A stretch of DNA of 64,000 nucleotides. Source: an uncultured Marinobacter sp. GTDB taxonomy: Bacteria; Pseudomonadota; Gammaproteobacteria; Pseudomonadales; Oleiphilaceae. The translations under genes and the position numbers were made by a program. Numbering within the stretch: the first letter of the stretch is position 1; each line of letters opens with the position of its first letter. The notes under the pieces are model-generated. The model ran no database searches. It worked only from the letters and a program-made list of their open reading frames with translations, and was not told where the DNA came from. Location of the stretch: contig NZ_CAMYMK010000007.1 of NCBI RefSeq assembly GCF_947259545.1, forward strand, positions 248,001 through 312,000, in the 5' to 3' direction. Shown piece by piece: positions 7,287-19,538 of the stretch.

Positions 7287-9481
7287 TGGCCCTGACAGAC
7301 GACACCAAGCAGCAGATTCAACAGGCTTACCGCGATGTCCTGGCCGGAAAAGACATTCGTGCCCGTTACGGCCAGCGGCTGATGATTGCGGAAATCGCCC
7401 GTTACATGGGCGACATCACCGATAATGACGGACAGCGAACGTCGCCGCCGTCCGCCTGTGTTGTGGAGGCTGGAACTGGTACCGGTAAAACCCTGGCGTA
7501 CCTGATCGCCGCCATCCCTGTGGCCAAAGCCCTGGGCAAGACCCTGGTGATCTCGACCGCGACGGTGGCACTGCAGGACCAGATTGTTCACAAGGACCTG
7601 CCGGATCTCAAGAAACACAGCAAGATGGACTTCACCTGGACCCTGGCCAAGGGAAGAGGGCGCTATCTCTGCATGTCCCGCCTGGAAGCCCGTCTCCATG
7701 ACGAGGGCAACGGCGACAGCGATACCATGCCATTGTTTCTGCTGGACGGCCCTGGTAACGAGGAACCCGGGACCCGTGCCTTCTTCGAAGACATGCTGGC
7801 CAGCTACGGTTCCCGGACCTGGGACGGTGACAGGGACCACTGGCCGGATCAGATTCCCGATGATATCTGGCGTCAGGTCACCACCGACCACCGTCAGTGC
7901 ACCAACCGCCACTGCAGCTACTTTGATAGCTGCGCGTTCTTTGACGCCCGAAAAGACCTGGACGACGCCGATATTGTGGTCGCGAACCACGACCTGGTCC
8001 TGGCTGATCTTGCCCTCGGCGGGGGTGCCATCCTGCCCGAGCCGGAGAACGCCCTGTTTATCTTTGACGAGGCCCATCACCTCCCGGACAAGGCGTTGAA
8101 CCACTTTGCCGCATCGGTTCCGCTGAATGCGACCCGCCAATGGCTCAAACAGCTGTCCCAGGCATTGGGGAAAATGCAGCCTTTCCTGGCGCCGGCCACT
8201 CAGGCAGCCAAGACCATTGATCGCGTCAGCGAAGCGTCCCGGGGCGTTGATGTGGCCCTGACCGAGGTTTACAGCGAAGCGGAGCAGAATACTGGCTGGG
8301 AGTTCAGCGAAGAGCGCCGCTCGGCACAGTGGCGATATCCGGAAGGCGAGTTGCCGGAAGTCCTGGCCGGCCTGGCCGCCAACGCACGGCTCGCGACGGC
8401 AAGCCTGGTGCGACAGCTTGGTGTGTTGGTGGATGAACTGCAGAAGGCATTTGATGAGCGCAAAGAACACGATGTCGACCGGGAGACCGCGGAGTCCTGG
8501 TACCCGGTCATCGGCTCGTTTCATGCCCGTGCGGAAGACCAACTCCGTCTCTGGGCGGCTTGGTGCGAAGCCACGGGCCCTCAACCCGTTGAAAGTGAAG
8601 ACGATGCTCAGGGTGAGGAAATCACCGTAAAACCCAAGCTGAAGAGTCCGCCGCCGGCTCGCTGGGCGGTTCGCCAGAGGTGGGATCACGCCGAGGACAT
8701 TACCCTGTACAGCAGCCCGGTATTGGCGGACAACCTGCTGTATGCACGGCTGTGGTCCCGGGCTTATGGCGCGGTTCTGACCAGTGCCACGTTGACCGCT
8801 CTTGGTCGCTTTGATCGGTTGCAGGCACGAGCTGGTCTTCCTGAGGCCAGTCGTTTCCTCGTGGTTCCCAGTTCCTTTCGCTACGCCGAGATGGCCACTG
8901 TGGAGGTGCCCGCCATGACGGCGATGCCGAGTGATGATGCTTTCACCGATGCGCTGGTGTCACGGCTGCCTGATCTTTGGGTCGGCGAGAAGGCAACCCT
9001 GGTGCTGTTCACGGCCCGTCGTCAGATGCAACTGGTGCGGGATGCCTTGGCGCCGGAGTATCCTGACCTGATCATTACCCAGGACGATATGGCCAAGGGG
9101 GAGGTGCTGCGTCAACACTGCAGCCGTGTGGACGAGGGGCGCCCCAGTGTCCTTTTCGGGGTCGCCAGTTTTGCTGAAGGCATCGACCTGCCGGGTAAAT
9201 ACCTTGGGCACGTGGTTATCACCCGGCTGCCATTCTCCGTGCCGGATGACCCGATAGAAGCCAGTCTGGCCGAATGGGTCTCCCAAAGGGGCGGCAACCC
9301 GTTTATGGAAATCACCGTACCGGATGCGTCCATCAAACTGGTTCAGGCGGTCGGTCGTTTGCTGAGGACTGAGCAGGACACCGGTCGGGTAACCATCCTT
9401 GACCGGCGTATCGTTACCCGACGCTACGGTCAGTTGCTGTTGGATGCATTGCCACCATTTCGACGTATCATTGAGCAGTAG
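7286..9481 (+). CDS. dinG: ATP-dependent DNA helicase DinG
   Basis: An XPD-like superfamily 2 helicase that unwinds DNA 5'-3' and resolves R-loops and other structures. Walker A is EAGTGTGKT (residues about 62-70) and the DEAH box is in FIFDEAHHL near residue 262. The four-cysteine 4Fe-4S region is visible as one Cys in GRYLCMSR (near 129) and three in QCTNRHCSYFDSC (near 205-216). C-terminal motif VI appears as QAVGRLLRTEQDTGR. The length of 731 residues is normal for the long DinG form. Being coupled to exeAB is unusual, and no LexA-type box is visible immediately upstream because the start lies inside exeB. Confidence 0.93.
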   Translation: MALTDDTKQQIQQAYRDVLAGKDIRARYGQRLMIAEIARYMGDITDNDGQRTSPPSACVVEAGTGTGKTLAYLIAAIPVAKALGKTLVISTATVALQDQIVHKDLPDLKKHSKMDFTWTLAKGRGRYLCMSRLEARLHDEGNGDSDTMPLFLLDGPGNEEPGTRAFFEDMLASYGSRTWDGDRDHWPDQIPDDIWRQVTTDHRQCTNRHCSYFDSCAFFDARKDLDDADIVVANHDLVLADLALGGGAILPEPENALFIFDEAHHLPDKALNHFAASVPLNATRQWLKQLSQALGKMQPFLAPATQAAKTIDRVSEASRGVDVALTEVYSEAEQNTGWEFSEERRSAQWRYPEGELPEVLAGLAANARLATASLVRQLGVLVDELQKAFDERKEHDVDRETAESWYPVIGSFHARAEDQLRLWAAWCEATGPQPVESEDDAQGEEITVKPKLKSPPPARWAVRQRWDHAEDITLYSSPVLADNLLYARLWSRAYGAVLTSATLTALGRFDRLQARAGLPEASRFLVVPSSFRYAEMATVEVPAMTAMPSDDAFTDALVSRLPDLWVGEKATLVLFTARRQMQLVRDALAPEYPDLIITQDDMAKGEVLRQHCSRVDEGRPSVLFGVASFAEGIDLPGKYLGHVVITRLPFSVPDDPIEASLAEWVSQRGGNPFMEITVPDASIKLVQAVGRLLRTEQDTGRVTILDRRIVTRRYGQLLLDALPPFRRIIEQ

Positions 9482-9486
9482 GCCAT

Positions 9487-9521
9487 AAAAAAAAGAGCCA
9501 TACCGGTCGGGTATGGCTCTT
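9487..9521 (-). terminator. Rho-independent terminator (minus strand)
   Basis: A perfect 12-bp stem (9493-9504 with 9510-9521) around a 5-base loop is followed on the minus strand by eight U residues (A8 at 9487-9494). No T-run follows on the plus strand, so it mainly ends leftward transcription, either from the candidate RNA or from the MalT-like gene. Confidence 0.9.
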
Positions 9522-9620
9522 GTCAAAAGGGTTCTGCTGAACCCGGGCGTCGAAACGCGGAACAAGGATTCTGAAGGCCTGAAGTTTCAGAATTCCTGAT
9601 GAGGCCTTGCCTCACCCTGA
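9487..9620 (-). ncRNA. Candidate structured small RNA (five hairpins)
   Basis: This region lies downstream of the MalT-like stop codon. Read on the minus strand it holds five consecutive stem-loops: 9600-9614 (6 bp), 9568-9593 (8 bp, 10-base loop), 9547-9558 (4 bp with a UUCG loop), 9529-9544 (6 bp) and the terminator at 9493-9521. A -10-like TATGAT (complement of 9626-9631) would start the RNA near 9620, just before the first hairpin. A perfect CRP-type palindrome lies about 83 bases upstream of that point, which suits class I activation. No coding frame is evident. It could instead be a structured 3' untranslated region of the regulator gene. I do not recognise the family. Confidence 0.5.
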
Positions 9621-9694
9621 AAAGAATCATAGAAGAAGGTAGGGCGTACCCGGATCGTCCAAAGGGCGTAGTGGGGCGGAATAGTTCGATGAAA

Positions 9695-9712
9695 ATGTGA
9701 TTCCTGTCACAT
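9695..9712. promoter_or_regulatory. CRP/Vfr-type binding site, perfect palindrome
   Basis: The sequence ATGTGA-N6-TCACAT (ATGTGATTCCTGTCACAT) matches the CRP/Vfr consensus TGTGA-N6-TCACA exactly, with 6-bp arms. It lies in the gap between the dinG stop and the MalT-like stop, so neither of these genes would be its target. The only downstream unit is the candidate small RNA on the minus strand. Confidence 0.65.
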
Positions 9713-9735
9713 AACGCTGGCTGTTCGGACCTGGT

Positions 9736-12537
9736 TTACTCCAGTAGCGCCAGCTCCCGTGCTTTTGCCAGCGCTTCGGTGCGGCGGCTGACGCCCATCT
9801 TCCCGTAAAGATTACGGATGTGTGCCTTGACGGTGGCAGGCGCGACGTTCATTCGGCTGGCAATGTCTTTGTTCGCCAGTCCCTCGTTGATCAGGGACAG
9901 AACTTCTTTTTCTCTCTGGCTCAGGGGTTCCGCCAGGGCTGCGCTGGCACTGGCGGTCCTTTCTTCATTGCTGTTTCTGGCTACGGCTGGCTCCGGACTC
10001 TTCGAACCATCGCCAATAGTGCGGAGCATAGCCAGCAGACTGCTGTTCCATCTTGACGGCGCGCGCAGGGCAGGTAGCTCCATCAATCGCTGACGTACGT
10101 TCGGGCTCTCCTCTGCGAATAGCCTCATGAACCCCGCGTCTGATGCCTTCTGTGCCGCCTGGGACAGCATCTGATTGGCCTCAGGGATCTTCCCTTCGAC
10201 GTAAAGGGCTTCGGAGTAGACTGTGAGAATTTCCACCAGATGACGGAAATGCTGGTCCTTTTCTGCGCTGAGCCTGAGTGGTATGAGTGTCGCTATGGCG
10301 TCCGCCGGGCGGCCAGCCGCCACCATCACCCTGGCAATACTGATCTGATTCTGTTCCCGGTTCAGGGGATTGGAAAAGTGCTCATCAGCGACTGATTGAG
10401 CCCACCGCTCGGCCTGTTGAAGGCGGCCGGCTGCCAGGTAGCATCGGGCAAGTAACGCCGAGCAGGCCGGGGGTTCGAAGACAATATGATCGCGCCTTCG
10501 GCGAGCTACTGTGGCGGCATCCTCCAGTGCTTCGATGGCCTCTTCGAAGCGGCCCTCACTAAAGGCGAGATGGCCACTCACATACTGAATTATCACGTGC
10601 TGACCGGGCTCGGTACCGTTGGCCACATGTTCCAGCAGTGGCGCAAGGTGTGAAGTTGCCAGTTCGGGCTCGTTACGTTCCCGGTAAATCTCCGTCAGCG
10701 CGCTGTTTTGCCAGCAGGAAATCAGCCTGGGTTGTGCCGGATCGGCATAATGCTGGTCCACCCAGTGCCGGACCGATGTGCAGGTTTCCAGTGCATCGTC
10801 GATATCACCACGATTGTATTGGATCCACGCCAGCAAACCGCCACTGGATAGTACCGTATTGGGTTTTCGCTCCAGTTCTCCATAGCGGACAGCGGAACGC
10901 AGGGCCTCCCTGGCAGATGGCAGATCCCCCTTGCCGTAATAGTCCAGGCCGATGCCATAGTAGGTGACGGACTTGAGCGGGATGCGGGTGTGATCGATGT
11001 CCATGAGCACCTGGCGCGTCAGGTCGCTGGCACTCTTGTCATCACTTCGGGTGCGGGCCAGGTAGGAGCGGATCAGGGAAATTTCACTTTGTAGGCCCAG
11101 GGCGCCTTCGGCGTCAGGATGGGAGTCCGCGACGCGCTGATCGAGAATATCTTCGAGATTCGAAAGCAACGGCTCCAGCATGTCAACGCGATTGGCAAAG
11201 AACAGCGACCAGATCCGTAGCATCTGAAGTTGGGGGCTATCCTCCACCATGTTAGCAGGGAGGGAATCCAACCAGTTGAGGACGGGGAGATGGTATCCCC
11301 CGTGAATCAGGTTGTTGCCGTGTTCTGTGAGTACCTGCGCCAGCCAGATCCAGTCCTGCTGGCGAACAATCTGGGCAATACCTTCCTGGACGTGGTCGTG
11401 ATTCAACAGCCATGACACCGCCCGCTGCCAGTGTTGTTCCGTGACTTCGGGACGCGAGGTCCAGGCTCGTTGCAGCAGTGCATCCCGGAACAGGTCATGG
11501 TACCGGAACCAGTGGTTGCGGGTGTCCAGGGGGATCAGGAACAGGTTCTGCTTCAGTAACTGCTCAAGCATGGACTGACTGTTTGATGCGCCCCGCACGG
11601 CATTGCACAGAGGAGCGCAAAGCTTTGGGCAGCAGGCGGTACTGAGCAGGAAGTCACGGATTGCTTCGGGTTGCTGTTCCAGAACTTCACTGAGCACGTA
11701 ATCATTGATTCGGCGCTCGTCAACGTCGATCGTCATTGGCGGGGACGAGGATTCGCTGGCAGGCGGGCCGACACCGGAGGCTGGTGATAAGAGGGCCGAC
11801 AACTGCATTGCTGCCACCCAGCCTTCGGTTTTCCGGAAGATTTTGCGGATCTCCTGTTCGGAGACCGCCAACTCCATGGTGTCCCGGAAAAAGCGACGGC
11901 ATTCTTCTTCGGAGAACGCCAGCAGGTTCGGGTGAATGTCTTCAATCCACTGGCGAACCCGCCAACGCGCCAGAGGCAGGGGAGGCTCTGTCCGTGACGC
12001 CAGAGTCAAGGTAATACCTGGCGGCAGATAATCCACAAAGTAGGAAAATTGACGCAGGATGTCCGTATTCCGGATCAGGTGGAAGTCGTCGAGGACCAAA
12101 GCCCATTGGGTGCCATCGTCGGCCAGCGCATTAAGAAGGCTGGTAATGGGGCCTTCCAGCTCATGAGTTGAGCAATGGCTGAGTTGCTGGCGGCAAGAGT
12201 CCAGACCCGTCATCCCGCTGTATTCCAATGCCCCTGCCAGGTACTGCCAGAAACGCCGGGGCTCATCGTCGTGGTCATCAAGGGAGAGCCATGCGGTTGA
12301 TGTTCCCTGTTGTGTGCACCACTGACTGACCAGTGTTGTCTTGCCGAAACCCGCTGGCGCAACAACCAGGTTGAGACGTTTAGGGGAGCCGGGTTGCAGC
12401 AGACGGCACAAGCGCTCCCGCCACACCGCGCGGGGATCAGAGGTTGGTCTGAGGAACTTCGTGGTCAGCAGCATCGTATCCCTGAATGCACTCGGAGTAT
12501 CGAACTCGGATTGTGTGCTTTGCGACACTGAAGTCAA
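9736..12537 (-). CDS. MalT/AlkS-like LuxR-family ATP-dependent transcriptional regulator
   Basis: A large STAND-type activator of about 933 residues. An N-terminal NTPase has Walker A APAGFGKTT (near residues 61-69) and a sensor-like VLDDFHLI. A TPR-like helical middle follows, then a C-terminal LuxR helix-turn-helix: LSQREKEVLSLINEGLANKDIA and VKAHIRNLYGKMG. Such proteins (MalT, AlkS, AcoK) bind an inducer and activate a nearby catabolic operon, but no obvious target operon adjoins it, so the inducer is unknown. The frame opens with TTG at 12537; an ATG at 12474 preceded by AGGGA is an equally good start and would remove 21 residues. It is divergent from cysB across 197 AT-rich bases. Confidence 0.87.
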   Translation of the reverse strand: MTSVSQSTQSEFDTPSAFRDTMLLTTKFLRPTSDPRAVWRERLCRLLQPGSPKRLNLVVAPAGFGKTTLVSQWCTQQGTSTAWLSLDDHDDEPRRFWQYLAGALEYSGMTGLDSCRQQLSHCSTHELEGPITSLLNALADDGTQWALVLDDFHLIRNTDILRQFSYFVDYLPPGITLTLASRTEPPLPLARWRVRQWIEDIHPNLLAFSEEECRRFFRDTMELAVSEQEIRKIFRKTEGWVAAMQLSALLSPASGVGPPASESSSPPMTIDVDERRINDYVLSEVLEQQPEAIRDFLLSTACCPKLCAPLCNAVRGASNSQSMLEQLLKQNLFLIPLDTRNHWFRYHDLFRDALLQRAWTSRPEVTEQHWQRAVSWLLNHDHVQEGIAQIVRQQDWIWLAQVLTEHGNNLIHGGYHLPVLNWLDSLPANMVEDSPQLQMLRIWSLFFANRVDMLEPLLSNLEDILDQRVADSHPDAEGALGLQSEISLIRSYLARTRSDDKSASDLTRQVLMDIDHTRIPLKSVTYYGIGLDYYGKGDLPSAREALRSAVRYGELERKPNTVLSSGGLLAWIQYNRGDIDDALETCTSVRHWVDQHYADPAQPRLISCWQNSALTEIYRERNEPELATSHLAPLLEHVANGTEPGQHVIIQYVSGHLAFSEGRFEEAIEALEDAATVARRRRDHIVFEPPACSALLARCYLAAGRLQQAERWAQSVADEHFSNPLNREQNQISIARVMVAAGRPADAIATLIPLRLSAEKDQHFRHLVEILTVYSEALYVEGKIPEANQMLSQAAQKASDAGFMRLFAEESPNVRQRLMELPALRAPSRWNSSLLAMLRTIGDGSKSPEPAVARNSNEERTASASAALAEPLSQREKEVLSLINEGLANKDIASRMNVAPATVKAHIRNLYGKMGVSRRTEALAKARELALLE

Positions 12538-16675: not shown

Positions 16676-16858
16676 ACTAACCCCGTAACAAATGTAGAAG
16701 AATGATAATCAGCCCACAAAACGGGCATTGTCGGTTCCGAACGCCCGCTGATCTAATAGATCGGACATTTCGCAGCTCCGGACAGGCTGGTGATCTATTT
16801 TAACCGACTTCCGGGGGTGTCGTGTGGAAACCGATTGAAAATAATAAGGAAGATTACG

Positions 16859-17467
16859 ATGACAAGACTCAACAAGTCACTGGTCAACATGGCGTTGACC
16901 GCAACTTTACTCACGTCTCCACTTGCGTTATCCGAGGAAAAACAGTTGGCCGTAGAGATACCTGAAAACAGTGTGCTTTCGGATGGAGTGCTTACCAAGG
17001 AAGAACTGGCGAGATACGCGATCGTTGGTCAACAACAACTGGTCAGGCTCACAGAGAAAGCTACCGAGGAGTACGCCTACGAGTTAACTGATCAGAATGC
17101 CAATATGCCTGCTGCCTGGATGCTGTTGGATGATGGGGAAACTATCAAGAGGATCAACATTGACGAGCAGGCAGATCAGGCACCTGCCCAGATGAGGATC
17201 CTGATGTACCGGGCAGCGCTCAAGTCGATCGCACGGCGTGGGAAGATCAATGCGGCCGTCATACTCTATACCGGCAAGGTGAAAGAAGGTGAGGATGCCG
17301 AGGCTCTGGTGATAGAGCATGAGCACAGGCTGGGCATCTCGGGGAACAAGGTCGTGCCGTTCCACCTGGAGGGAGGGGACGTTACATTCTCAAAGGCCGT
17401 CACGAGGGAAAAGCCCTTCCAGTTATTCTATGACGATAAGACTCAGGCACCGGCTCATCAGGGGTAA
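16859..17467 (+). CDS. Exported protein of unknown function (202 aa)
   Basis: I do not recognise this protein. It begins with a signal peptide (MTRLNKSLVNMALTATLLTS then PLALSEE, likely cut near residue 28), so it should be periplasmic or secreted. The mature part is charged and has no cysteine or obvious catalytic motif. A helical-looking stretch RILMYRAALKSIARRGKINAAVILYTG and an IEHEHRLGISGNKVVPFHLEG segment follow. The ATG at 16859 is chosen because AAGGAAG precedes it and the signal peptide starts there; an in-frame ATG at 16790 adds an unlikely leader. It lies upstream of, and parallel to, the FilA-like gene. Confidence 0.7.
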   Translation: MTRLNKSLVNMALTATLLTSPLALSEEKQLAVEIPENSVLSDGVLTKEELARYAIVGQQQLVRLTEKATEEYAYELTDQNANMPAAWMLLDDGETIKRINIDEQADQAPAQMRILMYRAALKSIARRGKINAAVILYTGKVKEGEDAEALVIEHEHRLGISGNKVVPFHLEGGDVTFSKAVTREKPFQLFYDDKTQAPAHQG

Positions 17468-17519: not shown

Positions 17520-17562
17520 TGTGAATGCAGTCACGGACTAGGACTGTAAAACAATCTTAAAT
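17520..17562 (+). promoter_or_regulatory. Probable CRP/Vfr-dependent promoter of the FilA-like gene
   Basis: TGTGA-ATGCAG-TCACG at 17520-17535 departs from the CRP/Vfr consensus by one base. A -10-like TTAAAT lies at 17557-17562, which puts the site centre (17527.5) at -41.5 from a start near 17569, the classical class II position. The coding start is at 17638. This is a reading of sequence only. Confidence 0.45.
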
Positions 17563-17637
17563 GACGTCGTGGGGTAAGGGACTCCACAACAAAATACAAA
17601 CTCAGATAACAACAACATGAGTTTATAAGGAGATAAT

Positions 17638-18552
17638 ATGAAAGGCCTGAAGAAAATCGCACTCGCAACAGCGGTCGCCGCTGCCCCGTTCGCAGCTCAC
17701 GCTGACCTAAAGGCAATGGATGACAGCGCAATGGGTAATGTCACCGGTCAGGCCGGTGTAACCATTGAGCTGGAAACCAAAGTAAGCATCGGCCAGTTCA
17801 AGTATACGGATGAAGGCTCCTTCGCCGTGAACGACATCGTTCTTGGTGGTGCCGGTGTGACAACTGAAGGTGCGGCAGCCGGCTACAATACGCTGTTGGA
17901 CCAGCTGAAGATCGATATCGACGTGGCCGATGACGGCGATGCCATCATCCATGTGGGCTCACTTGAGACCGACCCAACCACGGGGGCACCGGTTCCTATC
18001 GACTGGGGTATGACCGTTGGTTCCATGGAGCTGCTGGCTGGTAGTACTGGGTCAGACAGCACCACGCTGATCTCCAACATGAGCGGTTACGGTAACCTGG
18101 CAGCTCTCGACATGAGCGTTGATACAGCTACCGATCAGCTGAACATTGTTGCTGCGTTCGACATTCAGGATATGGACTTTGATGTCGAGTTCCTGGGCAT
18201 TGGTGTTCGAGACATGGTGATCACCGGTGCGGGTGACAACTTTGACTACGATGGCGATGGACTCCTCGTGTCTGAAGGTACCGAGACTGAAGAAGGTGGC
18301 AATGATCTGACGACCGCTGCTGGCCAGCTGGCATACGGCAAGCTGAGCAAATACGCCAACGTAGACCTGGACGTCTACAAAGGGGCTGGTCTGGGTGCCT
18401 CCACAGCTACAGACGTACTGCGTATTGACGTGAACAACGTCTACATGGATATGTCTATCGGTGCGGTTGAAATCGGTGGTACTTCCATTGGTTCGTTCGC
18501 CATCGACAACCTGGCGGTCACCGACACCAAGCTGGCTGTTTATGGTAAATAA
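17638..18552 (+). CDS. FilA-like putative pilus-system protein (DUF6160 type)
   Basis: A 304-residue exported protein starting with a clear signal peptide (MKGLKKIALATAVAAAPFAAHA), followed by DLKAMDDSAMGNVTGQAGVTIELETKV, the hallmark opening of DUF6160/FilA-like proteins of Acinetobacter, Pseudomonas and relatives. The rest is rich in Asp, Gly and beta-type segments and lacks cysteine, consistent with a repetitive beta-structured surface or secreted protein. A Ca-binding-like DNFDYDGDG stretch sits near residue 200. AAGGAG precedes the ATG and a strong terminator follows, so it appears to be a single-gene unit with its own promoter. Its molecular role is not established; the pilus link is by family name only. 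Confidence 0.72.
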   Translation: MKGLKKIALATAVAAAPFAAHADLKAMDDSAMGNVTGQAGVTIELETKVSIGQFKYTDEGSFAVNDIVLGGAGVTTEGAAAGYNTLLDQLKIDIDVADDGDAIIHVGSLETDPTTGAPVPIDWGMTVGSMELLAGSTGSDSTTLISNMSGYGNLAALDMSVDTATDQLNIVAAFDIQDMDFDVEFLGIGVRDMVITGAGDNFDYDGDGLLVSEGTETEEGGNDLTTAAGQLAYGKLSKYANVDLDVYKGAGLGASTATDVLRIDVNNVYMDMSIGAVEIGGTSIGSFAIDNLAVTDTKLAVYGK

Positions 18553-18674: not shown

Positions 18675-19304
18675 TTACTGATCCGGCACCGCTATCGATA
18701 AATCAAAGCCACCGCCCGGGCGAGGCGTCAGACTGATTGGCCCCTCGTTGATCGCCTGCGGCACTTCAATACGGTCAATGCCGGGTGGGTTACCGATGGA
18801 AAAGTTCACATTCTGGCCGTCGAAGCCGATGCCGAGCTGGTCGTTCAGGAATGTCTGTGTGAAGGGTTCATCCGGAATCTGCGCCTGTTGACCAAAGATG
18901 ATGGGCGGGATTGTGGGGGTGAAGTCCACTTGGGGCTGGGCACGAGCCAACTCTTCCTGGGGAAGTAGCAGGGCGCGGCGAAGGAATTCTTCCTCGGCCT
19001 GTTCCAGGGCGTCGGATTTGCCTTCTTCCTGATACCGCTGCAGGGCCTCGCGATAGGCCTCTTCTTCCGCTTCCGTCACCACCGGTTCACCCGGCGAAAT
19101 GGTCAGGGAGCGTATGATTCGCTGGCGGTCCGCTGCACTTTTCTGTTGATCTCTGGGAACGACGATGACAGCGGAGTCTTTCACATAGGTATCCACCATT
19201 TCATCGGATGTCATGGTTTGCACACCCGCTGACAGCATCGTGCTGAAAACAGCAAACCCGGTAGCGCTGGCGATGGCAATGGAGAGAGGAGATGGGCGTG
19301 TCAT
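18675..19304 (-). CDS. Exported protein of unknown function (209 aa)
   Basis: I do not recognise this protein. A hydrophobic N-terminal segment (LSIAIASATGFAVFSTMLSAG) is a signal peptide or membrane anchor. The middle is a highly charged helix, coiled-coil-like (EAEEEAYREALQRYQEEGKSDALEQAEEEF, residues about 80-110). The C-terminal third is Pro/Gly-rich and beta-like, ending LTPRPGGGFDLSIAVPDQ. The ATG at 19304 is chosen because the hydrophobic segment begins just after it and GGGGC precedes it. It is convergent with the FilA-like gene, sharing the terminator gap. Confidence 0.68.
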   Translation of the reverse strand: MTRPSPLSIAIASATGFAVFSTMLSAGVQTMTSDEMVDTYVKDSAVIVVPRDQQKSAADRQRIIRSLTISPGEPVVTEAEEEAYREALQRYQEEGKSDALEQAEEEFLRRALLLPQEELARAQPQVDFTPTIPPIIFGQQAQIPDEPFTQTFLNDQLGIGFDGQNVNFSIGNPPGIDRIEVPQAINEGPISLTPRPGGGFDLSIAVPDQ

Positions 19305-19538
19305 GGTATAGCCCCTTGGCCTGTGATCCACGAAGATGAGGTGCGTCTGAAGTTACTGCGATCAGCCCGCGCCCTACTAATCAGTATTCGGATTGCCAGA
19401 CAGAAATTCAAGGGATTTATGGCGGGATTGTGACCGCTATCGGTGTATTTTCAGTATTGTTATAAATATTCTGGTAAAGATGGTTATATAGGCGGCTGAT
19501 TTTTTTCAGAAGCCCCTCGGGTTGGTAACAGGATCTCT

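What the first reader, a model, noticed from the sequence alone, without database searches (positions are those of the whole stretch)
9487..9712. Compact five-hairpin RNA candidate with its own terminator, downstream of a perfect CRP/Vfr palindrome
Between the dinG and MalT-like stop codons, where no promoter would be expected, the minus strand shows ATGTGA-N6-TCACAT (9695-9712), a TATGAT -10-like box (complement of 9626-9631), five successive hairpins in 128 bases (one with a UUCG loop) and a 12-bp terminator stem with U8. The site centre is about 83 bases from the predicted start, close to the -82.5 phase used by class I CRP promoters. Together this looks like a catabolite- or Vfr-controlled small RNA of a family I do not recognise. 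The layout is seen in the sequence; the RNA and its control are inference.
Basis: partly seen in the sequence, partly recalled or inferred. Interest (0 to 1): 0.72.

Follow-up and report, generated by a model that had tools for sequence, protein, structure and literature searches.

The report
Small RNA guarding DUF6160 start codons
Marinobacter and related bacteria share a conserved hairpin-RNA gene whose loop is complementary to the first codons of DUF6160 genes (predicted exported proteins), so it is likely a small RNA that would block their translation, probably on command of CRP and a neighbouring MalT-like regulator.

Summary
The CRP palindrome, -10 box, hairpins and terminator are in the sequence. 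The locus is found in 99 of 124 Marinobacter genomes, with compensatory changes in the stems. No Rfam family reaches its gathering score.

(1) The most constant promoter part is not the CRP site but a box, TACGCCC-N3-GGACGAT-N5-TACGCCC, starting 39 bp before the -10; it persists in genera where no CRP site was found. (2) In the genus the RNA and the adjacent MalT-like regulator gene occur together: 99 and 98 genomes, one exception, G087. (3) A target: the hairpin-2 loop (ACUUCAGGCCUU) is complementary to the start of a DUF6160 gene 8 kb away. Codons 2-4 of that gene are AAA GGC CTG in 70 of 70 copies read, while every later codon varies. Loops of other genera shift register but stay largely complementary.

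Best reading: a new base-pairing sRNA family, likely activated by the MalT-like protein plus CRP, that occludes the Shine-Dalgarno and early codons of DUF6160 mRNAs. I have no transcript or binding data.

The parts
9695..9712 (-). CRP/Vfr-type palindrome ATGTGA-N6-TCACAT, predicted centre about -82 to -85
   Evidence: exact in window; 8-10 of 10 half-site letters in 99 of 99 loci, start 41 bp before box 1 in 98 of 99
9664..9670 (-). box 1, TACGCCC direct repeat
   Evidence: alignment of 99 loci
9654..9660 (-). GGACGAT core of the promoter element
   Evidence: unchanged in 99 of 99 genus loci (the loci had been found by BLAST with this region); whole element at up to 4 mismatches in 15 of 18 regions downstream of MalT-like orthologs in other genera
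9642..9648 (-). box 2, TACGCCC, 22 bp after box 1
   Evidence: exact in 89 of 99 loci; the exact double repeat occurs once in the own genome
9626..9631 (-). -10 box TATGAT
   Evidence: 39 bp after the start of box 1 in 93 of 99 genus loci; a -10-like hexamer there in 35 of 37 elements outside the genus
9487..9619 (-). predicted sRNA, about 133 nt
   Evidence: fold z -4.5; covariance model R1 and pair counts; start site inferred
9598..9616 (-). hairpin 1
   Evidence: 4 of 7 pairs with changes on both sides
9566..9596 (-). hairpin 2, presents the seed in its loop
   Evidence: stem arms covary between genera, 0 of 20000 arm permutations as good
9576..9585 (-). loop ACUUCAGGCC, predicted seed (with following UU)
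   Evidence: complementary to 17642-17652; TCAGGCC invariant in the 83 aligned loci
9547..9558 (-). hairpin 3 with UUCG loop
   Evidence: 93.7% of cells paired in 83 loci
9529..9544 (-). hairpin 4, GGGUUC/GAACCC
9493..9521 (-). intrinsic terminator stem, U-tract to 9487
   Evidence: 3 pairs of the outer and 3 of the inner stem with both-side changes
9736..12537 (-). MalT-like LuxR-family regulator (MalT TPR region + LuxR HTH; ORF 933 aa from TTG), likely activator
   Evidence: PF17874 121.7 bits, PF00196 66.4 bits; NCBIfam MalT 432.7, below its cut-off 537; co-occurrence
17638..18552 (+). DUF6160 protein gene, predicted target
   Evidence: PF19657 128.5 bits
17642..17652 (+). predicted pairing site AAGGCCTGAAG, codons 2-5
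   Evidence: longest loop match of 1592 candidate start codons in the window; codons 2-4 identical in 70 of 70 copies read
17627..17632 (+). Shine-Dalgarno AAGGAG, predicted second pairing block
   Evidence: duplex predictions
17520..17535 (+). CRP-like site TGTGA-N6-TCACG upstream of the DUF6160 gene
   Evidence: 9 or 10 of 10 letters at -115 to -124 in 30 of 30 loci

Best explanation
The locus is likely the gene of a trans-acting small RNA, about 133 nt long, whose hairpin-2 loop is predicted to base-pair with the start of DUF6160 mRNAs and would repress their translation. Shown by sequence: a promoter of fixed geometry (CRP palindrome, box 1, GGACGAT, box 2, -10), a covarying hairpin RNA with terminator, and a loop complementary to codons 2-5 of DUF6160 genes (in the 7-Mb genomes of genus g3, to all or part of the AUG and the codons after it). 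Inferred: transcription starts near 9619; the neighbouring MalT-like ATPase regulator, once it senses its unknown signal, binds the repeat box and activates together with cAMP-CRP; the loop pairs with the early codons while the following UCCUU/UUCUCC stretch pairs with the Shine-Dalgarno, closing the ribosome site, perhaps with Hfq. Because a CRP-like site also precedes the DUF6160 gene, CRP plus the MalT-like signal would form an incoherent feed-forward loop: CRP turns DUF6160 on, the signal turns it off.
For: Conservation and synteny: 99 of 124 genus genomes by BLAST, own included. In these 99 loci tblastn finds the regulator's end upstream in 98 and dinG downstream in 97 (the misses are L089 and two loci cut by a contig end). 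Rigid promoter geometry. RNA structure: 11 of 36 pairs with both-side changes, 0 of 500 shuffles as good; hairpin-2 arms, 0 of 20000 permutations (hairpin ends chosen by eye). Regulator link: RNA in 99 and MalT-like (E 1e-60) in 98 genus genomes; the only RNA without an intact regulator is G087, and no regulator is without RNA. In G005 both are decayed by what look like separate deletions. Outside the genus the element follows the MalT-like stop in 15 of 18 regions read, and in six more g3 genomes and G139. The exact core pattern was in 0 of 372 genomes of other families drawn from the order. Target: ATGAAAGGCCTGAA in 133 of 163 family genomes, reversed control in 1 of 163; in 97 of 99 RNA+ and 2 of 25 RNA- genus genomes. 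Codons AAA GGC CTG in 70 of 70 copies, every later codon variable. Of 17 DUF6160 genes outside the family 0 carry the 14-mer, and one with the same peptide start MKGLKK has the synonymous CTT. In 22 RNA/target pairs the duplex beat the shuffle mean in all; 16 or fewer of 300 shuffles reached it in 21.
Against: No transcript, start site, protein-DNA or RNA-RNA data. Raw duplex energy does not single out the DUF6160 start in the window: it is not among the best 12 of 1592 starts; only seed length does. The 10-mer AGGCCTGAAG is not enriched in the own genome (13 sites including the RNA itself, control 11). A third DUF6160 type starts ATGAAAAGCCTGAA with similar constancy (13 of the 20 loci fetched as paralogs), one base off the seed, so part of the constancy could be a constraint on translation initiation. 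G142 and G143 carry the target start but no RNA and no exact element was found. In genus g9 the pairing needs G-U pairs: G145 is weak (70 of 300 shuffles) and G146 has no Watson-Crick run over 5. In one search the own 3' arm ranks first in only 8 of 18 hairpins, second in 8, fourth and seventh in one each. Adjacent genes are lost together easily, and the 25 RNA-negative genomes may be few lineages (no tree made). The windows were picked by the start motif.
Confidence: 0.77

Rival explanations
1. The RNA is real and pairs with DUF6160 starts, but its activator is not the adjacent MalT-like protein; another factor reads the TACGCCC/GGACGAT box and the neighbour is only a hitch-hiking gene.
For: Binding is untested; in G146 and G159 the element and RNA are not next to the MalT-like gene; in G087 RNA and box remain after loss of most of the regulator gene.
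Against: Presence and absence match in 123 of 124 genus genomes, and the element follows the MalT-like gene in 15 of 18 regions read in other genera and in seven more genomes. G087 is the one genus locus with a changed base directly before box 1.
Confidence: 0.25
2. The RNA is mainly the 3' UTR of the regulator mRNA (read-through product ending at this terminator), with an internal promoter of little importance.
For: The RNA terminator is the only terminator-like site found on this strand in 9000-10200.
Against: CRP site, boxes and -10 keep their spacing over 99 loci, and boxes and -10 over 37 elements elsewhere; in G146 element and RNA lie beside dinG without the regulator gene upstream.
Confidence: 0.08
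3. The DUF6160 start is constant for reasons of its own (translation initiation or signal-peptide codons), and the match to the RNA loop is coincidence; the RNA acts on other targets.
For: MKSLKK paralogs are also nearly constant at these codons; duplex energy ranking in the window is negative.
Against: Only codons 2-4 are invariant while the others vary; outside the family the same peptide start uses another codon; loops of other genera shift register yet stay within the complement of the same stretch, with wobbles in g9; presence of RNA and of the start coincide.
Confidence: 0.12
4. The loop sequesters a protein or pairs with itself (AGGCCU is self-complementary), so the RNA works as a dimer or sponge rather than by mRNA pairing.
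For: AGGCC is in most of the 25 hairpins folded.
Against: Some loops lack the palindrome (for example G129 and G134) but still match the DUF6160 start.
Confidence: 0.04

Closest known systems
Vsr217 of Vibrio (PMC8265627, passages read)
   Same: An sRNA under a MalT activator in carbon metabolism, trans-acting repression of an mRNA, conserved through a genus.
   Different: Vsr217 lies in the malK 5' UTR, has no predicted Rho-independent terminator and targets fbp; here the RNA has its own terminator, follows the regulator gene, has a CRP site and a different predicted target. No sequence or structure relation was tested.
sRNAs acting in the coding sequence of ompD (RybB, SdsR, MicC; PMC4911921, title and start of abstract in the listing)
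   Same: Predicted pairing inside the coding start of an mRNA for a predicted exported protein.
   Different: Different RNA, regulator and target; seed in a closed hairpin loop.
SdsR_RyeB (Rfam RF00111)
   Same: Weak resemblance of the last two hairpins (25.9 bits).
   Different: Below the gathering score of 38 and not seen in 20 relatives searched at E up to 5; treated as chance.
AlkS/MalT-type LuxR activators (PMC8784404, passages read)
   Same: Regulators of the LuxR/MalT family whose sites lie beside the -35 region.
   Different: AlkS sites are described there as 20-bp inverted repeats; the box here is a direct repeat 22 bp apart around GGACGAT. That MalT's own boxes are direct repeats is recalled, not looked up.

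Membership tests
[quoted passage not shown]
   promoter elements and terminator conserved; transcription itself not testable here
trans-acting base-pairing small RNA | conserved RNA structure with compensatory changes | tested here: met
trans-acting base-pairing small RNA | conserved seed complementary to a conserved site in target mRNAs | tested here: met
   raw energy ranking in the window negative
trans-acting base-pairing small RNA | Hfq or ProQ binding and regulation of the target in cells | not testable with these tools
   needs experiments
class I CRP-dependent promoter | CRP site at a fixed upstream position, no good -35 | tested here: inconclusive
   site and spacing conserved in Marinobacter, phase depends on an unmapped start; not found in several genera
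MalT/AlkS-family regulator (the neighbour) | MalT-like TPR region plus LuxR HTH | tested here: met
MalT sensu stricto | NCBIfam MalT equivalog cut-off | tested here: not met
   432.7 bits, cut-off 537
MalT-controlled promoter (box bound by the neighbour) | protein binding to the repeat box | not testable with these tools
   only co-occurrence and adjacency
SdsR_RyeB RF00111 | Rfam gathering score | tested here: not met
   25.9 of 38 bits; no match in 20 relatives

The most novel reading that the evidence does not exclude
A dedicated signalling circuit of a whole bacterial family: a MalT-type signal ATPase whose main or only DNA target is one small-RNA promoter, and a small RNA whose loop has co-evolved, sliding in register from genus to genus, to cover the start codon and Shine-Dalgarno of DUF6160 genes; regulator, RNA and target family are kept or lost together.
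Probability: 0.5. Interest if true: 0.75.

Novelty: new member of a known kind. Interest (0 to 1): 0.66.

Why it matters
It turns an unexplained intergenic palindrome into a testable circuit in a widespread marine genus: likely activator, promoter box, RNA, seed and target site are all named to the base. It gives a handle on two unknowns at once, the signal of an orphan MalT-like regulator and the function of DUF6160 proteins, and a natural series of nine genera in which seed and target can be compared.

Tried and rejected
SdsR_RyeB and other Rfam families: below gathering score and not repeated in 20 relatives; 10 loci from other genera gave none at gathering score. A regulon of the box: the exact double repeat occurs once in the own genome, and the 22 sites with up to 2 mismatches do not exceed the control of 44. 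Extra RNA copies: of the weak R1 hits (20-31 bits) I read eight. Seven (L241, L243-L248) are ends of other genes or tRNAs with a terminator; L242 is real, and G137, also weak, proved real (L254). Ranking targets by raw duplex energy failed. RNAalifold on the MAFFT alignment missed hairpins 2 (long form), 3 and 4, so I named the structure myself from these sequences, which favours it in slid controls. Papers: no report of this RNA turned up in searches (listings only); 'DUF6160' is in one paper of the library (listing only). PMC8784404, PMC8265627 and PMC9438474 were read as passages; nothing I saw in the last bears on this RNA. A first regex was wrong and found nothing; it was corrected. The HTH motif search missed 16 of 99 loci.

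Dropped rows: the structure counts used 83 of 99 loci; L056, L076, L078, L082, L084-L086, L088, L091-L093 and L096-L100 were left out of A1 as near-duplicate, short or more divergent, which favours a clean alignment. Target starts were read in 70 of the 86 genus genomes with a DUF6160 match at E 1e-30, own included; one of the 70, G075, is a 58%-complete assembly without an RNA hit. The script fixed codon 2 as AAA by its pattern; read the same 70 starts by position. Start codons were guessed by script. One search used 18 hairpins of the 25 folded, with ends chosen by eye. G075 was left out.

Full report
Anatomy. On the minus strand between the MalT-like stop codon (9736) and the dinG stop codon (9481) the sequence shows a perfect CRP-type palindrome (9712-9695), two TACGCCC heptamers 22 bp apart (9670-9664, 9648-9642) around GGACGAT (9660-9654), a -10 box (9631-9626), four hairpins and a terminator ending near 9487. 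The RNA segment folds better than all 200 shuffles (z -4.5).

Conservation. BLAST of the intergenic region finds it in 99 of 124 genomes of the genus, own included. Named records identify the genus as Marinobacter (76 stretches with the exact 20-mer, one match each, all labelled Marinobacter except one Tamilnaduibacter, one Mangrovitalea and one MAG labelled Halomonas). In the 99 loci, tblastn finds the MalT-like end upstream in 98 and dinG downstream in 97 (L089 lacks the regulator, L092 and L098 end before dinG). These loci were chosen by similarity to this region, so overall conservation is partly selected; the spacing is informative. The TGTGA start lies 41 bp before box 1 in 98 of 99, the -10 box 39 bp after its start in 93 of 99, box 2 is exact in 89 of 99, and the CRP half-sites keep 10, 9 or 8 of 10 letters in 65, 28 and 6 loci. 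Shuffled upstream stretches reach 8 or more in 2%.

Structure. On the 83-sequence alignment the structure I named has 95.5% of cells paired and 11 of 36 pairs with changes on both sides; none of 500 shuffles reaches any of the five measures, and slid versions are lower on every measure. Hairpin 2 varies little within Marinobacter and has no both-side change there. Across genera, 18 hairpins (17 from eleven genera and one unlinked copy in G159, ends chosen by eye) give a mean arm-arm energy of -8.35 for own arms and -3.20 for swapped arms; 0 of 20000 permutations are as good. Singly, the own 3' arm ranks first in 8 of 18 and second in 8. The stem changes while the core AGGCC or GCCUUUC stays in or next to the loop in nearly all of the 25 hairpins folded. 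No Rfam family reaches its gathering score in the window or in 10 loci of other genera.

Range. The covariance model finds matches in 117 of 163 family genomes at E 1e-3. Outside the genus the clear ones are six genomes of g11, one each of g8, g5, g10 and g15, and weaker ones in g4. Of eight weak matches read, seven are other terminators. Reading downstream of MalT-like orthologs in genera g2, g3, g4, g9, g12, g13 and g14 showed the element in 15 of 18 regions with at most 4 mismatches; 14 of the 15 are followed by an AGGCC core and L259 by AGGCUUU. In G160 box 2 is missing. In G146 and G159 the element and RNA lie elsewhere, in G146 beside dinG with the regulator on another contig. Six more g3 genomes and G139 have the element right after the regulator (coordinates). 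An exact core pattern hits 10 of 390 genomes of the order, all in this family, 0 of 372 outside it; it misses 6 of the 16 RNA-positive family genomes drawn.

Which input is primary. Outside Marinobacter a -10-like hexamer (second A, sixth T) is best placed at +39 in 35 of 37 elements read and at +38 in two, but a CRP-like site of 8 or more letters is found in only 20 of 37. It was not found in the g2, g3, g9 and g16 elements or in the unlinked G159 copy; in g4 and g12 it sits at -39 or -50. So CRP looks like an added input; the box is the constant one. The box is unique in the own genome. Its likely reader is the neighbouring MalT-like protein: RNA and regulator are both present in 98 genus genomes and both absent in 25, with one genome (G087) that has the RNA but only the last codons of the regulator. 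In G005 remnants of both remain: 29 residues of the regulator's end, then a CRP half-site fused to the 3' half of the RNA, which looks like two separate deletions. Binding of the regulator to the box is inference, and the RNA-negative genomes may be few lineages.

Target. The loop complement AGGCCTGAAG occurs 13 times in the own genome, about as often as its control (11). One site, however, lies on the start of the ORF at 17638-18552, a DUF6160 protein with a signal-peptide-like start. Among 1592 candidate starts in the window this one has the longest match to the loop (11 nt; the next has 10). In 70 of 70 gene copies read, own included, codons 2-4 are AAA GGC CTG, while each of codons 5-20 varies at its synonymous site. 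ATGAAAGGCCTGAA occurs in 133 of 163 family genomes against 1 of 163 for the reversed pattern: in 97 of 99 RNA-positive and 2 of 25 RNA-negative Marinobacter genomes. Of 14 ORFs with this start that I scanned from other genera and other copies, 13 are DUF6160 by Pfam; L336 is not. The DUF6160 family itself is found in only 2 of 24 RNA-negative genus genomes searched, both borderline. In one search the 12 RNA-positive genus genomes listed all have it, and G013 and G041, RNA-negative, do not. Of 17 DUF6160 genes from other families of the order none has the 14-mer, and one that encodes the same MKGLKKLALATAVAAAPFA start uses CTT.

Co-evolution. In 22 RNA/target pairs from g1, g2, g3, g4, g5, g8, g9, g10 and g11 the predicted duplex is stronger than the mean of 300 shuffles in all 22; the shuffles reach it 0 to 16 times in 21 pairs and 70 times in G145. 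The register slides: Marinobacter loops cover codons 2-5, the g4 loop 12 nt from the G of AUG on, and three of four g3 loops all or part of the AUG plus the codons after it; G134 (g3) and both g9 genomes need G-U pairs. By eye, a second block covers at least part of the Shine-Dalgarno in the predicted duplexes. The windows were found by the start motif, so the test speaks for the quality of pairing, not for discovery. Against this, raw duplex energy does not rank the site first in the window, and MKSLKK paralogs show a similar constancy with one base off the seed (13 of 20 loci fetched as paralogs).

Model. A CRP-like site also precedes the DUF6160 gene at -115 to -124 in 30 of 30 loci. With CRP on both sides and the MalT-like signal on the RNA side only, an incoherent feed-forward loop is the simplest circuit. 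That pairing at the Shine-Dalgarno and first codons represses translation follows from established sRNA biology (recalled; coding-sequence pairing by RybB, SdsR and MicC seen in the listing). The nearest known relative in logic is Vsr217, a MalT-activated sRNA. What the MalT-like protein senses and what DUF6160 does are unknown; a second DUF6160 gene of the own genome (G000:C7:616740-617045, L406) also starts with the 14-mer.

Noticed in passing
L463 (G146:C25:75044-75062, minus): A second copy of the promoter element with a -10-like box and another hairpin RNA with terminator but a different loop, without dinG or the MalT-like gene in the 3 kb read; suggests paralogous RNAs under the same activator.
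   Followed up: partly
L254 upstream of box 1: In this g4 genome a third TACGCCC lies 22 bp before box 1; the CRP site sits further up (-50) in L254-L256.
   Followed up: partly
13 loci among L393-L407: A third DUF6160 type, MKSLKK, starts ATGAAAAGCCTGAA almost without variation, one base off the RNA seed; a possible weaker target or a sign of another constraint.
   Followed up: no
L268, L237 (G005): Remnants of both the MalT-like gene and the RNA, apparently from separate deletions.
   Followed up: partly
L267 (G087): MalT-like gene gone except its last codons while RNA and box remain; the base before box 1 is changed, and the CRP site has one mismatch, as in 28 of 99 loci.
   Followed up: partly
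L283 (own genome C3:18509-18518): The seed complement also lies 37 nt before the first ATG of a long ORF; a possible further target.
   Followed up: no
G142, G143: Fragmented assemblies with DUF6160 starts matching the seed but no RNA, exact element or MalT-like match found at the thresholds used.
   Followed up: partly
window 16790-17467 (+) and 18675-19331 (-): Two ORFs flanking the DUF6160 gene without any Pfam or NCBIfam match.
   Followed up: no
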